Shown here one piece after another: positions 20,069 through 24,973 of a stretch of 64,000 bases of DNA. The notes under the pieces are model-generated. The model worked only from the letters and a program-made list of their open reading frames with translations. It searched no databases and was not told where the DNA came from. The position numbers were made by a program, and so were the translations under genes. The stretch's first letter is position 1. Every line of letters starts with the position of its first letter. This DNA comes from Propionibacteriaceae bacterium (GTDB lineage Bacteria > Actinomycetota > Actinomycetes > Propionibacteriales > Propionibacteriaceae), in the NCBI GenBank assembly GCA_031271975.1, contig JAISUR010000016.1:1-64000 (forward strand). The letters are read 5' to 3'.

Positions 20069-20515
20069 ATGAAGTTGATCCTGACTCAGACTGTCGACCA
20101 CGTCGGCATTCCCGGCGACATCGTCGAAGTGAAAGACGGCTACGGCCGCAACTACTTGCTGCCGCGCGGCTTTGCGATCGCGTGGAGCAAGGGCGCCGAG
20201 AAGCAGATCGCAGGCATCAAGCGCGCGCGGGACGCCCGGGAGATCCGTTCCGAGCAGCACGCCGCCGAGATCCGCGCCCAGTTGGAGGAGCTCAAGGTGA
20301 GCCTTCCGGCGCGCGCGGGCGAGTCCGGCCGCCTGTTCGGCGCGGTCACTCCGGCCGATGTGGCCCTGGCTGTGAAGAAGGCCGGTGGCCCCGCCATCGA
20401 CAAGCGCTCCGTCGAGATCGCCAAGCCGATCAAGACGCTCGGCAAGCACACCGTGGGCATCAAGCTCACCGCCGGTGTGGTCGCCCACATCGAGTTGGAT
20501 GTGGCCGCCGCGTAA
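20069..20515 (+). CDS. rplI: Ribosomal protein bL9
   Basis: This 148-residue large-subunit protein has the two-lobed L9 layout: an N-terminal domain (MKLILTQTVDHVGIPGDIVE, then GYGRNYLLPRG) , a long central helix and a C-terminal lobe. A GGAGG site precedes the ATG. It ends the S6 operon; dnaB, which often follows in related genomes, is not here. A very strong hairpin terminator follows at 20527-20567. Confidence 0.96.
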   Translation: MKLILTQTVDHVGIPGDIVEVKDGYGRNYLLPRGFAIAWSKGAEKQIAGIKRARDAREIRSEQHAAEIRAQLEELKVSLPARAGESGRLFGAVTPADVALAVKKAGGPAIDKRSVEIAKPIKTLGKHTVGIKLTAGVVAHIELDVAAA

Positions 20516-20526
20516 GCGCCAAGAGC

Positions 20527-20567
20527 AAACCAGAAGGCCCCCGCCAACGGCGGGGGCCTTCTGGTTT
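20527..20567 (+). terminator. Intrinsic terminator of the rpsF operon (first copy of the 31-bp repeat)
   Basis: A perfect 19-bp stem (20527-20545 with 20549-20567) has the 3-base loop AAC. Its core, CAGAAGGCCCCCGCCAACGG running on to CCTTC (31 bp at 20531-20561), is repeated exactly at 21910-21940. Only a short TTT follows. Confidence 0.85.
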
Positions 20568-20573
20568 CCCTGG

Positions 20574-20633
20574 CCCGACAGCCACCACTTTTGCGAATGA
20601 ATCAGCAAAAGTGGTGGCTGTCGGGAAGTTTTT
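20574..20633 (+). terminator. Perfect 21-bp inverted repeat followed by a T-run
   Basis: The left arm (20574-20594) starts CCCGACAGCCACC, the right arm (20605-20625) ends GGTGGCTGTCGGG, and all 21 bp pair across a 10-base loop. TTTTT follows at 20629-20633. As RNA this is a textbook terminator; as DNA it could be an element end. It lies 7 bp after the rplI terminator and 18-25 bp before the ATPase start. Confidence 0.6.
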
Positions 20634-20650
20634 CTGATAGATTCGCAACT

Positions 20651-21856
20651 ATGGCTCTCACCGACCGCCCGCGCTACTTGGCTTGGTTGCGCCGATGGCA
20701 AGGCCATCAGCTCGTGAAAGTTGTCACTGGGGTGCGCAGGTGTGGCAAGTCGACATTGTTGGCGATGTTCCAAGCGGAACTGGCCGCCCAAGGCGTAGCG
20801 GCCAGGCAGATCATGTCGTTCAATCTGGAGGATCCCGACACTGAGTCCACGTTGAGCCAGGGGCTCGCGTTGTATCACGAGGTCAAGGCCAGCCTTGTGC
20901 CGGGCCAGACGACCTATGTGTTCATCGACGAGGCTCAACACTTGACGGAACTGGAGCGCACCGTCGCGGGTCTGGCGCTGCTACCTGATGTGGACCTCTA
21001 CATCACTGGGTCAAACTCGGGGTTTCTCAGCCAAGAGTTGGCTACCCGGCTCACCGGTCGTTATCAGGAACTCCACGTTCTGCCGCTGTCGTTTGCCGAA
21101 TCTGCCGGGGAGGTGTCGGTCGGGCAGCACGGCGAAGAACTCGATCATTACCTCAAGTTCGGAGGCTTTCCATACGTGGCCCGTCTCGCCCCAGACGAGA
21201 CCATGGTCCGAGAGTACTTGGGGGCCGTTGTGGACGCTGTCCTCCTCAAAGACGTTGCCCGGCGCCAAGCCTCAGTGAATGTGGCGGTGCTCAACACAGT
21301 CACGGACTTCATGTTCGACAACGTCGGCAATCAAGCTTCCATCAAACGAATCTCGGACTCACTGACGTCGGCGGGCCGGAAGATCGGACGTGGTGCGGTG
21401 CAGAACTATGTCGACGGGCTGGTGGAGGCGTATCTGCTCTACCCTGCGCAGCGATATGACATCCGTGGCAAGGCTCGACTCTCCAGCAACCCGAAGTACT
21501 ATCTCGTTGATCCTGGCTTGCGGCGTGCCCGCCTCGGATCTCGACATGCCGACCTCGGTCACGTGTTGGAAAATGTGGTATTTCTCGAGTTGTTGCGCCG
21601 CTATCGCCGGGTCGCCGTCGGCAAGCTTGATGTCGGTGAAGTGGATTTCGTGGTCGAAACCGATGATGGTCCTGCCTACTATCAGGTGGCACTCAACGTC
21701 GACGAGCCCAGCACCTTGGCTCGCGAACTGCGCAGCCTCGCCGCCATTCCGGGCCATGCCCCGCGTACCCTCTTGGTTGGCGACCACGCTTCGCGCGTCA
21801 CCTACGACGGCATTCCGCGGGTGAATGTTGTTGATTGGCTCTTGGAAGTCGCATGA
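20651..21856 (+). CDS. AAA-type ATPase with DUF4143 domain
   Basis: This 401-residue protein has an N-terminal P-loop ATPase and a C-terminal DUF4143 region. Walker A is GVRRCGKST (27-35) and Walker B is VFIDEAQH (about 92-100), followed by TGSNSGFLS, a sensor-like segment. The C-terminal part (about 195-401) ends in a nuclease-like fold region with the GKLDVGEVDFVVE pattern. The function of these scattered, often transferred ATPases is not established. The ATG at 20651 lies after the 21-bp hairpin; the longer reading would be encoded by that hairpin. The gene is bracketed by two identical 31-bp terminator copies and by eye is less GC-rich than its neighbours. Confidence 0.85.
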   Translation: MALTDRPRYLAWLRRWQGHQLVKVVTGVRRCGKSTLLAMFQAELAAQGVAARQIMSFNLEDPDTESTLSQGLALYHEVKASLVPGQTTYVFIDEAQHLTELERTVAGLALLPDVDLYITGSNSGFLSQELATRLTGRYQELHVLPLSFAESAGEVSVGQHGEELDHYLKFGGFPYVARLAPDETMVREYLGAVVDAVLLKDVARRQASVNVAVLNTVTDFMFDNVGNQASIKRISDSLTSAGRKIGRGAVQNYVDGLVEAYLLYPAQRYDIRGKARLSSNPKYYLVDPGLRRARLGSRHADLGHVLENVVFLELLRRYRRVAVGKLDVGEVDFVVETDDGPAYYQVALNVDEPSTLARELRSLAAIPGHAPRTLLVGDHASRVTYDGIPRVNVVDWLLEVA

Positions 21857-21909
21857 GCCCGTCTTGCGTGTGTAGGACTCTGGAGAAGTTGAACGGGTTC
21901 TTGACACGC

Positions 21910-21940
21910 CAGAAGGCCCCCGCCAACGGCGGGGGCCTTC
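21910..21940. terminator. Second exact copy of the 31-bp terminator core
   Basis: The sequence from CAGAAGGCCCCCGCCAACGG to CCTTC is identical to 20531-20561 in the same orientation. Its 13-bp stem would terminate the leftward protease gene and the ATPase gene. The outer stem bases of the first copy (AAAC, GTTT side) are not kept. Confidence 0.8.
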
Positions 21941-21949
21941 CTTATTGGC

Positions 21950-24900
21950 TTATGCCCAGTGGGCGTAGAGGGTGGTCGTGCCGGTGATCAACACGGTGTC
22001 GGTGGGGTTCCGCTTCGTGCCGCCGGAGGCCGCCGTGTACCAGCCTTGGAAGGTCTTGCCCTTCAGCTTCGGCGTGGGGAAGCTGCCGTACTGGCTGCCG
22101 TAGGTGTACTTCTTCGACTTCGTTGAGACGGATCCGCCGTTCGCGTCGAACTTGACCGTGTACTTCACGCCCTCCCAGCGGGCGATCAGCTGCTGCGAGC
22201 CGGCCACCTTGATCTTTGTGCCCTTGGCGATCTTCGAGCCGCCCGTCGCCGCCGTGTACCAACCCTTGAAGGTGTAGTTGGCGCGGGTGGTCGTCGGCAT
22301 CTCCGGAGCTTTCTGGCCGTAGGAGTAGACGATCTGTGTGCCCGCCGGCACGGCCGAGCCGCCATTCGCGGCGAACGTCAGCGTCTGCGTGTCGGAGACG
22401 GTGACCGTCCAGTTCCACGTCGCCGTGCCATAGGTGACGGTCAGCGTCTGGGCGCCCAGCTTCTTCGGATCGAACTTCGACACCTTGATGCTGGAATCCT
22501 TCAGCGGGATGTTGGCTGTGCTGGTGTCGGCGTACCGGACGGTGATGGTCGGGCTGGCCGACGGGTTCGGGCCGTAGGTCCGATCCAGGGCGGCGCCCTT
22601 CACCTGCGTGGGGCGCGCGTTGTTGATAGCCGTGATCTGCGAGACAGCCGACCAGTGCGCGTACAGCGTGGTGTTGACGGTGATCTTGACGGTGGCGCCG
22701 TCGTTGATCTTCGTGCCGCCGGTGGCCGCGGTGTACCAGCCGAGGAACTTGTCAGTGCCCTTGGTCGCGCCGGGCAGCGTGCCGTACGTGCCGTCGTAGG
22801 TGTACTTCTTCGACTTCGACTTGGCCTTGCCGCCGTTGGCGTCGAACTTCACCGTGTAGGTGTTGGCCTTCCAGTGCGCGTACACCGTGAAGGGCGCGGT
22901 CTGCGTGAGCTTCTTGCCCTCGGAGATCTTCGAGCCCTTCACCGGGTCGGTGTACCAACCCTGGAACGTGTAGCCCGCCATCGTCGCCGTCGCCAGCGAA
23001 CCCTTGGCCAGCTTCTCCTGGTAGCTGAAGCTCAACGTGGACTTGCTGATTGTGGCCGCCGGCGACTTCCCGGAGTCGTTCTTGTTGAACGTGATCACGC
23101 CCTGGGTGATGGTGTAGGCCTGGGTCACGCACTTGCCCCAAGGCTTGAAGCAAACCTGCATGTTGCCGGAAGCCTGGTTGTTGAAGTTCTTGACCTCAAC
23201 CTCTTTGCTGCTCAGCGACAGCGACTGCAGCGTCTTGCCATTGAAGTTGATGTTCAAGGTGCCCTGCTTCTTGTTCAGCGGCGCGCCCTTGAGGTAGTTG
23301 GTCTGCAGGCCGGACGCGGCCAGCGTGACCGCCGTGGTCGACGAAGCGAAGGCCTTGATGTTGAAGTTGCCGTAATACGCCGTCGCTCCATACCTGGCGT
23401 ACGTGGCCCGCAGATCCGTCCACGACTTGCCGTTGTAGGAGTAGAGGCTCTCTCCGGGGTTGGCCTTCACCCTGCCGACGTCCACGCTGGTTGTGGCGGC
23501 CTCGACCGGCATCCAACGAGTGCCGGAAGTGTAGACCACGACGGCGAACTTCTGGTTGGGGGTGAGCACCACTGGGGTGGTCAGGTCGACAGTCTTCAGG
23601 CCGGCGTAGGTGAACTTGCCGGAGATTGACGTGGACGAGCCGTTGATCTTCTGCAAGGTGCCGCTGTTCGGCTTCGCCGGGTTCGACAGGTTGGTGTAGA
23701 CCATCACCTTGTAGGAGACGCCCGGTTCGATTGCCGTGAAGGAGACGGCGTTGAGGTAGCCGCCGATGGAGCTGGCGGTGAAAACGTTCGACATGTACAG
23801 CTTCTTGGAAGTGCTCACCGAAATGCCGTCCTGCGTGCCGAACGGATCGTAAGAGTAGAACATGTCCGTCGCGTTGCTCAGCCCGTCAGAGGCCGTGGCG
23901 ACGTCGTAGTACACCGCCTCGTCGATGGACTTGTCGTAGTAGGACAGCCAGAAGTAGCCGCTATCGCCCCAACCGGTGCCCCAAGAGTTCTTCACCAAGA
24001 AAGCGCCGTTGCCGTCCGGCGTGTGGGTGAACTTGCTCTTGGAGAAGTTGTCGTCCCATCCCACGATGGTCACGGCGTGGTCGGCGCGGTAGGCCGGATT
24101 CGTCAGCGGATTCACATACGTGTAGTGGGCCTTGTTCGTCGGGTTGTAGAGCCCGTAACGGCCGTCCGGATCAGACGAGTAGCCGATGAACACGGCACCG
24201 TAGGTCTGCACCGCGGCTTTGATCGTCGTGACGTTCTTGGCCACGTACGAGTTCTTCGAGTTGCGCGGGGTGGGGAGGAAGTAGACGTTCTTGAGGTGGT
24301 AATCCGACGTGGTCAACGTCGAAGGCTTGGTCGCATACGCGCTGAACGGCCAGTCGGTTTCCTTCTCGACGCCGTTGAACTGCGACCACGCCGACGGCGC
24401 CGTCCAGCCGTTGCCGCCTTGGCTGGTGACCTGGCTGGTGGCCACGTTCATGCCGGTGCCGTTCCAGGACGCCCAGGCGGTGTGCCGCGGCGACAGGACT
24501 GTCGCCGAACTGGCGGCGCCGTTGCGCACAATGGCGGATTCGGCCGAGGCGGTCGAGGCGAAGGCCCAGCACCAACCAGTGCTGCCTTGGTCGCGCACCG
24601 GCGTCACCCATGTCGAGTGCGCCGTGCGCAAGTTGTAGCTTGCCGGCAGCGAAGCGGTCTTGAGATTGCCGGGCAGCGCATAGGAAGCGTCGTTGATTGC
24701 ATCCATGTTGATCCGGCTGGGGATATATCCATACTCGGACACTTCCGGCTGCGCGATGGCCTCGTTGACGGCCGTCATCGGGTTCGGATCCTCCGGCGCC
24801 GCAACTTCCGCCTCTGCTTCCTCGGCTGGAGCGACCGGGGTGCCGCCCTTGCCTATCACTTCGACGGTGGCTTCCGGATCGGGGGTTTCGGGGTCTGCCA

Positions 24901-24973
24901 TGGCTACGGCCGGGGTGCCGAATGCCAAGGCGATTGAAATCAGTGCGACCGCTAGACGATGGGTGGACTTCAT
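21950..24973 (-). CDS. Secreted papain-family (C1) cysteine protease with InlB-type repeats
   Basis: This 1007-residue exported protein has a signal peptide ending near AVAMADP (about residue 26). An acidic linker leads to a C1 peptidase domain with Q129, C135 (VRDQGSTGWCWAF), H299 (ADHAVTIVGWDD) and N329 (KNSWGTGWGDSGYF), so it should be active. A beta-rich, lectin-like region follows (about 370-560). Near the end are four InlB/Flg_new-type repeats of about 70 residues with GWYT...(L/V)YAHW patterns (about 632-702, 704-774, 865-936, 937-1007) and an Ig-like stretch between the second and third. It ends right after the last repeat, with no LPxTG motif or membrane anchor. A role in host or substrate attachment plus proteolysis is inferred. 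Confidence 0.88.
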   Translation of the reverse strand: MKSTHRLAVALISIALAFGTPAVAMADPETPDPEATVEVIGKGGTPVAPAEEAEAEVAAPEDPNPMTAVNEAIAQPEVSEYGYIPSRINMDAINDASYALPGNLKTASLPASYNLRTAHSTWVTPVRDQGSTGWCWAFASTASAESAIVRNGAASSATVLSPRHTAWASWNGTGMNVATSQVTSQGGNGWTAPSAWSQFNGVEKETDWPFSAYATKPSTLTTSDYHLKNVYFLPTPRNSKNSYVAKNVTTIKAAVQTYGAVFIGYSSDPDGRYGLYNPTNKAHYTYVNPLTNPAYRADHAVTIVGWDDNFSKSKFTHTPDGNGAFLVKNSWGTGWGDSGYFWLSYYDKSIDEAVYYDVATASDGLSNATDMFYSYDPFGTQDGISVSTSKKLYMSNVFTASSIGGYLNAVSFTAIEPGVSYKVMVYTNLSNPAKPNSGTLQKINGSSTSISGKFTYAGLKTVDLTTPVVLTPNQKFAVVVYTSGTRWMPVEAATTSVDVGRVKANPGESLYSYNGKSWTDLRATYARYGATAYYGNFNIKAFASSTTAVTLAASGLQTNYLKGAPLNKKQGTLNINFNGKTLQSLSLSSKEVEVKNFNNQASGNMQVCFKPWGKCVTQAYTITQGVITFNKNDSGKSPAATISKSTLSFSYQEKLAKGSLATATMAGYTFQGWYTDPVKGSKISEGKKLTQTAPFTVYAHWKANTYTVKFDANGGKAKSKSKKYTYDGTYGTLPGATKGTDKFLGWYTAATGGTKINDGATVKITVNTTLYAHWSAVSQITAINNARPTQVKGAALDRTYGPNPSASPTITVRYADTSTANIPLKDSSIKVSKFDPKKLGAQTLTVTYGTATWNWTVTVSDTQTLTFAANGGSAVPAGTQIVYSYGQKAPEMPTTTRANYTFKGWYTAATGGSKIAKGTKIKVAGSQQLIARWEGVKYTVKFDANGGSVSTKSKKYTYGSQYGSFPTPKLKGKTFQGWYTAASGGTKRNPTDTVLITGTTTLYAHWA

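What the first reader, a model, noticed from the sequence alone, without database searches (positions are those of the whole stretch)
20527..21940. AAA/DUF4143 ATPase gene bracketed by two identical copies of a terminator
The 31-bp core of the rplI terminator (20531-20561) recurs exactly at 21910-21940, on either side of a lone AAA/DUF4143 gene. Without the block from one repeat to the other, rplI would end at a single two-way terminator facing the protease gene. So the ATPase gene looks like an insertion that duplicated the terminator, or that used it as a target. DUF4143 ATPases have a patchy distribution, which fits transfer.
Basis: partly seen in the sequence, partly recalled or inferred. 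Interest (0 to 1): 0.6.

Follow-up and report, generated by a model that had tools for sequence, protein, structure and literature searches.

The report
Single-gene insertion that duplicated a terminator
A lone, foreign-looking ATPase gene (a predicted phage-defence gene) sits between two identical copies of a transcription terminator, and the same kind of scar around its relatives elsewhere indicates that such genes enter genomes by an insertion that copies the host DNA at the entry point.

Summary
In detail: a 32-bp exact direct repeat (20530-20561, 21909-21940) brackets one AAA_14/DUF4143 gene (20651-21856). Its 29-bp core occurs nowhere else in the 2.7-Mb genome. Insertion is the best reading. 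In 29 other rplI loci (25 congeners) no such gene follows rplI, apart from one congener with a distant DUF4143 subfamily member. The gene's GC3 is 0.71; ten neighbours have 0.74-0.90. One congener shows rplI, a single terminator, then a convergent InlB-repeat gene. Direct repeats flank 20 of 136 relatives of this ATPase but 3 of 297 pooled controls; another relative in the genus is bracketed by a 108-bp copy of a ygfZ-like 3' end seen at most once in every other relative. Genes of the Fic family carry the scar as often (9 of 63), so the ATPase need not make it. This is the published pattern 'insertion with long target duplication', known for restriction-modification genes, here extended to PDC-S01-type candidate defence genes. 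No near-identical empty genome was available, and a 6-bp complementarity across one junction argues against the simplest version. The mechanism is unproven.

The parts
20069..20515 (+). rplI (ribosomal protein L9), left neighbour
   Evidence: Pfam PF03948/PF01281
20527..20567 (.). terminator-like hairpin, upstream copy, 19-bp perfect stem; 32-bp repeat core 20530-20561
20562..21908 (+). presumed inserted unit (1,347 bp between the two repeat copies), one gene only
   Evidence: inferred from the repeat positions and ORFs
20574..20625 (.). perfect palindrome, 21-bp arms and 10-nt loop, inner core TTTTGC...GCAAAA, unique in the genome; candidate operator of the ATPase gene
20651..21856 (+). AAA_14 + DUF4143 ATPase, 401 aa; PADLOC phage-defence candidate PDC-S01
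   Evidence: Pfam, PADLOC PDLC04787 E 2.7e-129, AlphaFold2 model mean pLDDT 89.7
21909..21940 (.). downstream copy of the 32-bp repeat, 13-bp stem hairpin (21912-21940)
21950..24973 (-). C1 peptidase with lectin-like and List_Bact repeat domains, right (convergent) neighbour
   Evidence: Pfam, ORF

Best explanation
The ATPase gene with about 90 bp upstream and 50 bp downstream was acquired from outside and inserted in the gap between the convergent genes rplI and the protease. The insertion copied the resident two-way terminator, so rplI, the new gene and the protease each still end at one. It belongs to the pattern called insertion with long target duplication: host DNA of variable length (in the cases here 28 to about 570 bp, often the 3' end of a neighbouring gene or its terminator) appears on both sides of a single accessory gene that carries no transposase or integrase. 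Shown: the unique exact repeat, absence of the gene after rplI in relatives, the compositional contrast, and enrichment of the same scar around relatives of this gene and around Fic genes but not around four other gene families or random intervals. Inferred: that the event was an insertion with duplication, that host recombination made it (staggered-end repair, or RecA-mediated entry of a circle bearing a host 3' end), and that the gene is kept as a phage-defence gene.
For: Unique 32-bp repeat. No such gene after rplI in 28 of 29 other loci. GC3 contrast. Direct repeats at E<1e-6 within 700 bp flank 20 of 136 distinct ATPase loci (21 of 137, one locus, L042/L068, being counted twice) against 3 of 297 pooled controls, Fisher p 2e-8: rplI 0 of 29, random intervals 2 of 120, PF00300 0 of 30, window intervals 1 of 118. 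Two further families, not in that pool: PF00144 0 of 29, PF01555 0 of 30. Target-duplication layout: ygfZ-like 3' end, 108 bp at 93.5%, in G013, two copies in G013 and at most one in 25 other loci; katG-like 3' end, 101 bp at 97%, L199; L069, L089, L131. Serial case: L391, where one segment recurs between each of four accessory genes beside tRNA-Pro. Plasmid presence/absence at one site, Acinetobacter.
Against: The upstream copy has six paired bases (AAACCA/TGGTTT) of which the right half runs past the repeat edge. In a simple target duplication TGGTTT would belong to the insert, a chance of about 1 in 4096. No strain-level empty site could be reached; the closest rplI relative is 88% identical in protein. 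About 85% of relatives show no scar, and 22 further plasmid and virus-contig loci show none. At least five of the 20 scars are arguable: L136, L184 and the window itself are palindromic or multi-copy by the script's flag, L071 is only 75% identical and abuts the gene, and L217 lies in an hsdS locus with other hsdS repeats.
Confidence: 0.74

Rival explanations
1. RecA-type entry, a variant of the best explanation: the gene came in on a circle or fragment that already carried the same terminator (or host 3' end) from a related donor, and one homologous crossover at that sequence left it on both sides. No new duplication arose here; the scar is a portable homology.
For: Explains exact identity, variable lengths, and serial copies of one segment between neighbouring accessory genes in L391; Fic and ATPase genes share the scar.
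Against: The terminator after rplI differs in sequence among the 29 relatives, so the donor would have to be a very close strain; 32 bp is short for homologous crossover (general knowledge).
Confidence: 0.3
2. The ATPase carries its own mobility: its PD-(D/E)XK-like domain nicks the target twice at variable spacing and the gap is filled, giving target duplication.
For: AAA+ plus predicted helix-turn-helix and nuclease-like C-terminal part (the literature describes PDC-S01 as ATPase fused to PD-(D/E)-X-K, passage in PMC12988326); single-gene unit; scar enrichment.
Against: Fic genes, with no such nuclease, carry the scar at the same rate, 9 of 63 (Fisher p 1.0); no shared ends were noticed among the units (not tested systematically).
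Confidence: 0.12
3. The hairpin next to the protease was copied from the one next to rplI (or the reverse) by gene conversion or template switching after the ATPase gene had entered by some other route.
For: The extra pairing only in the upstream copy suggests that the upstream copy is the intact original.
Against: Needs two events; does not explain scars around relatives.
Confidence: 0.13
4. Chance or convergence: each neighbour happens to have a similar GC-rich terminator.
For: GC-rich hairpins are common terminators in such genomes (general knowledge).
Against: 32 identical bases including the loop, and no third copy of the 29-bp core with up to 3 mismatches in 2.7 Mb; shuffles give none in the window.
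Confidence: 0.02

Closest known systems
Insertion with long target duplication (Nobusato et al. 2000, Helicobacter pylori; known here through passages in PMC1643837 and PMC3031569, the original not read)
   Same: Accessory gene between long, variable direct repeats of the host target, described as long and variable target duplications
   Different: Described for restriction-modification genes by comparing strains; here a lone ATPase, a 32-bp copy that is itself a terminator, and no strain pair to compare
PDC-S01, PADLOC single-gene phage-defence candidate (passages in PMC12988326 and PMC13356809)
   Same: HMM match over the whole protein, E 2.7e-129
   Different: Defence activity is not shown for this protein; I saw no work on how PDC-S01 genes insert
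Genes flanked by repeats after transposition in Arabidopsis (passages in PMC2869330)
   Same: Transposed genes flanked by host-derived direct repeats at a similar rate (14.3% over 30 bp against 2.0% in controls, as printed there)
   Different: Eukaryote; parental sites partly known
Insertion sequences and integrase-borne islands
   Same: Direct repeats at the edges
   Different: No transposase or integrase ORF in the unit; repeat length varies from gene to gene

Membership tests
Insertion with long target duplication | direct repeats longer than usual transposon target duplications on both sides of an accessory gene | tested here: met
   32 bp exact
Insertion with long target duplication | the repeated DNA is the host target, single in an uninterrupted relative | tested here: inconclusive
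   Window: relatives have a hairpin of different sequence. Met for the G013 ygfZ-like case, where no other relative shows a second copy
Insertion with long target duplication | no transposase or integrase in the inserted unit | tested here: met
   Only the ATPase ORF is credible in 20562-21908
Insertion with long target duplication | polymorphic in closely related strains | not testable with these tools
   Only one genome per species is held
PDC-S01 / COG1373-type AAA_14-DUF4143 ATPase | AAA_14 then DUF4143 in one chain | tested here: met
   Both over their Pfam cut-offs; PADLOC PDC-S01
PDC-S01 / COG1373-type AAA_14-DUF4143 ATPase | anti-phage activity | not testable with these tools
   Needs plaque assays; a literature passage says validation is pending for most such candidates
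Insertion sequence or transposon | terminal inverted repeats and transposase with fixed-length target duplication | tested here: not met
   No inverted repeats at the unit ends apart from the terminator itself; no transposase; variable repeat length in relatives
Site-specific integrative element | integrase gene in the element | tested here: not met

The most novel reading that the evidence does not exclude
Single-gene defence cassettes (PDC-S01 ATPases, Fic genes and others) spread by one shared route that needs no mobility gene: each carries a captured piece of a host gene's 3' end or terminator as portable homology, so it can leave as a circle and enter the same spot in the next genome by ordinary recombination. 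This builds arrays in which the same host segment separates one defence gene from the next, as in L391.
Probability: 0.2. Interest if true: 0.78.

Novelty: new member of a known kind. Interest (0 to 1): 0.55.

Why it matters
PDC-S01 is described as the fourth most common defence system across prokaryotes (passage in PMC12988326), yet its function and spread are unexplained. A scar that marks entry gives a handle on how lone defence genes move without transposases, and insertion that copies a terminator explains how they land beside essential genes such as rplI without breaking them. That Fic genes carry the scar at the same rate points to a host-side route rather than one coded by the passenger.

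Tried and rejected
Rejected: chance repeat; common genomic terminator or REP family; multi-copy spread of the upstream palindrome (single in the genome); transposon or integrase element. The idea that the scar is specific to the ATPase was dropped when Fic genes gave 9 of 63. Some Fic scars are themselves arguable: L268 is an hsdS conserved block, L290 has five copies, L237 is weak and GC-rich, L251 carries IS-end-like sequence (name recalled).

Led nowhere or weak: no flanking repeats in 22 further plasmid and virus-contig loci, several near-duplicates of each other; Acinetobacter plasmid copies downstream of the ATPase are badly decayed (74-82%), and sites without it hold a Fic module instead of being empty; L217, a 522-bp perfect repeat, lies in an hsdS locus with other hsdS repeats next to a recombinase-like ORF, so it is weak evidence; Enterococcus and Lactobacillus plasmid searches gave no clean empty site; Foldseek against PDB gave only generic AAA+/STAND matches and a sequence profile none; NCBIfam none. 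Upstream palindromes are frequent in ATPase loci (57 of 141) but also in Fic loci (16 of 59), so they do not explain mobility; only the AGTTTTTG motif is family-specific (18 of 141 against 0 of 59).

Rows dropped before counts: loci with under 200 bp on either side and exact gene duplicates were left out; one duplicate (L042 = L068) escaped and is removed in the text. L007 was not found by the family profile, so it is not in the 137. The palindrome count uses 141 upstream and 140 downstream stretches of full length, still with that duplicate; its shuffles keep only base composition. In one search four of the 63 Fic loci lack a full upstream stretch or were left off the list, leaving 59.

Full report
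Observation. The window holds rplI (20069-20515, +), a hairpin with a 19-bp stem, an AAA_14/DUF4143 gene (20651-21856, +), a second hairpin and a convergent C1 peptidase gene (21950-24973, -). The two hairpins share 32 identical bases, 20530-20561 and 21909-21940. The 29-bp core with up to three mismatches has no third place in the 2,703,676-base genome. Both fold well below shuffled sequence, although a scan that requires a T run calls neither a terminator. The claim of two terminator copies is confirmed, with 32 rather than 31 bases.

Is it an insertion? Of 60 genomes searched for rplI (own included), 57 have it; 30 loci were returned, 29 of them from other genomes (25 same genus, 4 same family). 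After rplI all differ from the window. A profile of the ATPase family finds a match only in the window locus and in L027 of G014, where a distant AAA_14/DUF4143 gene follows the rplI hairpin, its contig ending inside the gene. The spot was thus used at least twice. L018 of G020 shows rplI, one hairpin and a convergent InlB-repeat ORF, which looks like the arrangement without the gene, although orthology of that ORF with the window protease is not shown. The ATPase gene has GC3 0.711, ten neighbours 0.740-0.899. In its genus 6 of 30 genomes (own included) carry a relative at E<=1e-30, the others at other places; in the phylum 32 of 296; relatives appear in many phyla and on plasmids, mostly of Acinetobacter. 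Its own genome has six DUF4143 genes.

The same scar elsewhere. While reading relatives I saw direct repeats around some. I then tested all distinct loci in hand: BLAST of 700 bp upstream against 700 bp downstream, same strand, E<1e-6. ATPase loci: 21 of 137, or 20 of 136 after removing a locus counted twice. Controls: 2 of 120 random 1.2-kb intervals in the flanks of those loci and rplI 0 of 29, 1 of 118 window intervals, PF00300 genes 0 of 30. The comparison against these (3 of 297) gives Fisher p 2e-8. Two later control families add PF00144 0 of 29 and PF01555 0 of 30. Fic-domain genes, taken as a second mobile class, gave 9 of 63, no different from the ATPase (p 1.0). So the scar marks certain lone accessory genes and is not made by the ATPase as such. 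Some scars are arguable: three are palindromic or multi-copy, the window's own included; L071 is 75% identical and abuts the gene; L217 lies in an hsdS locus. Without these five, 15 of 136 remain.

What the scars look like. In G013 (L048) an ATPase gene stands between satP-like and ygfZ-like genes (names recalled) and 108 bp of the ygfZ-like 3' end, 93.5% identical, lie on its far side. Searching that segment in 26 ygfZ loci of the genus found two copies in G013 only (one of them cut by the locus end) and at most one elsewhere: one copy in 18, none detectable in 7. In L199, 101 bp of a katG-like 3' end (name recalled) are repeated. L069 (28 bp), L089 (43 bp) and L131 (186 bp) repeat the 3' end of the upstream gene, L135 about 570 bp with a whole small gene. 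In L391 (G063) a tRNA-Pro gene is followed by a Fic gene, a 423-aa ATPase of the DUF4143 kind (by motif), the 414-aa PDC-S01-like ATPase and a further gene, with pieces of one segment between each. On Acinetobacter plasmids the ATPase lies between an HNH gene and a DUF4236 gene, with decayed copies of the HNH 3' end and terminator on its far side, while other plasmids hold a Fic module in the same gap.

The gene. The protein matches PADLOC PDC-S01 at E 2.7e-129. A 30-sequence AlphaFold2 model has mean pLDDT 89.7: an AAA+ part, a helical and winged part and a mixed C-terminal part. I infer the winged-helix and nuclease-like roles from the order of elements and from a passage that describes PDC-S01 as an ATPase fused to PD-(D/E)-X-K (PMC12988326); Foldseek gave only generic AAA+/STAND matches. 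A 21-bp-arm palindrome lies 25 bp before the start codon. Perfect inverted repeats of 10 bp or more occur upstream in 57 of 141 ATPase loci, downstream in 15 of 140, and in 3 of 141 shuffles. The motif AGTTTTTG is found upstream in 18 of 141, in about 1.2 after dinucleotide shuffling, downstream in 2, and in 0 of 59 Fic loci. I read it as an operator bound by the protein itself; this is inference.

What is known. 'Insertion with long target duplication' was described for restriction-modification genes of H. pylori by Nobusato et al. 2000, which I know only from passages in PMC1643837 and PMC3031569; a later paper by the same group was not held. In Arabidopsis, transposed genes carry flanking repeats at a similar rate (passages, PMC2869330). 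I saw no paper linking DUF4143 or PDC-S01 genes to such scars in the searches made; that is not proof of absence.

Against. The upstream hairpin has more paired bases than the downstream one, and TGGTTT on its right side, past the repeat edge, would belong to the insert in the simplest model; its complementarity to AAACCA is a coincidence of about 1 in 4096. The event may therefore have involved hairpin-templated copying or a partial copy of an intact upstream terminator. Most relatives carry no scar, and 22 plasmid and virus-contig loci carry none. No near-identical empty genome was at hand.

Verdict. It is a new member of a known but poorly understood kind; the wider pattern across PDC-S01 and Fic genes is what makes it interesting.

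Noticed in passing
L391 131-256, 1481-1696, 3246-3340, 4804-5010, 6474-6530 (G063:C21): Pieces of one segment separate a Fic gene, two DUF4143-type ATPases and a further gene beside tRNA-Pro: serial single-gene insertions.
   Followed up: partly
window 20574-20625: Perfect 21-bp-arm palindrome before the ATPase gene; inner core TTTTGC/GCAAAA recurs before relatives while outer arms differ yet stay complementary.
   Followed up: partly
L027 2198-3031 (G014): A distant DUF4143 ATPase gene also follows rplI in another congener.
   Followed up: partly
L150, L152-L154 (Acinetobacter plasmids): The same gap next to a BREX locus holds either the ATPase or a Fic module.
   Followed up: partly
L392 5114-5635 and 7009-7530 (G233): 522-bp perfect direct repeat of hsdS-like DNA around an ATPase gene, with a recombinase-like ORF next to it.
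   Followed up: partly
L394 5972-6197 and 8468-8693 (G150:C21): Repeated segments around a cluster of two ATPase-like ORFs and a Fic gene.
   Followed up: no
L244, L256, L266: Three Fic genes share an upstream palindrome TTTACCGCCAATGGCGGTAAA.
   Followed up: no
window about 680-720 and 2468-2508: A 41-bp direct repeat, 90% identical, turned up in the control scan.
   Followed up: no
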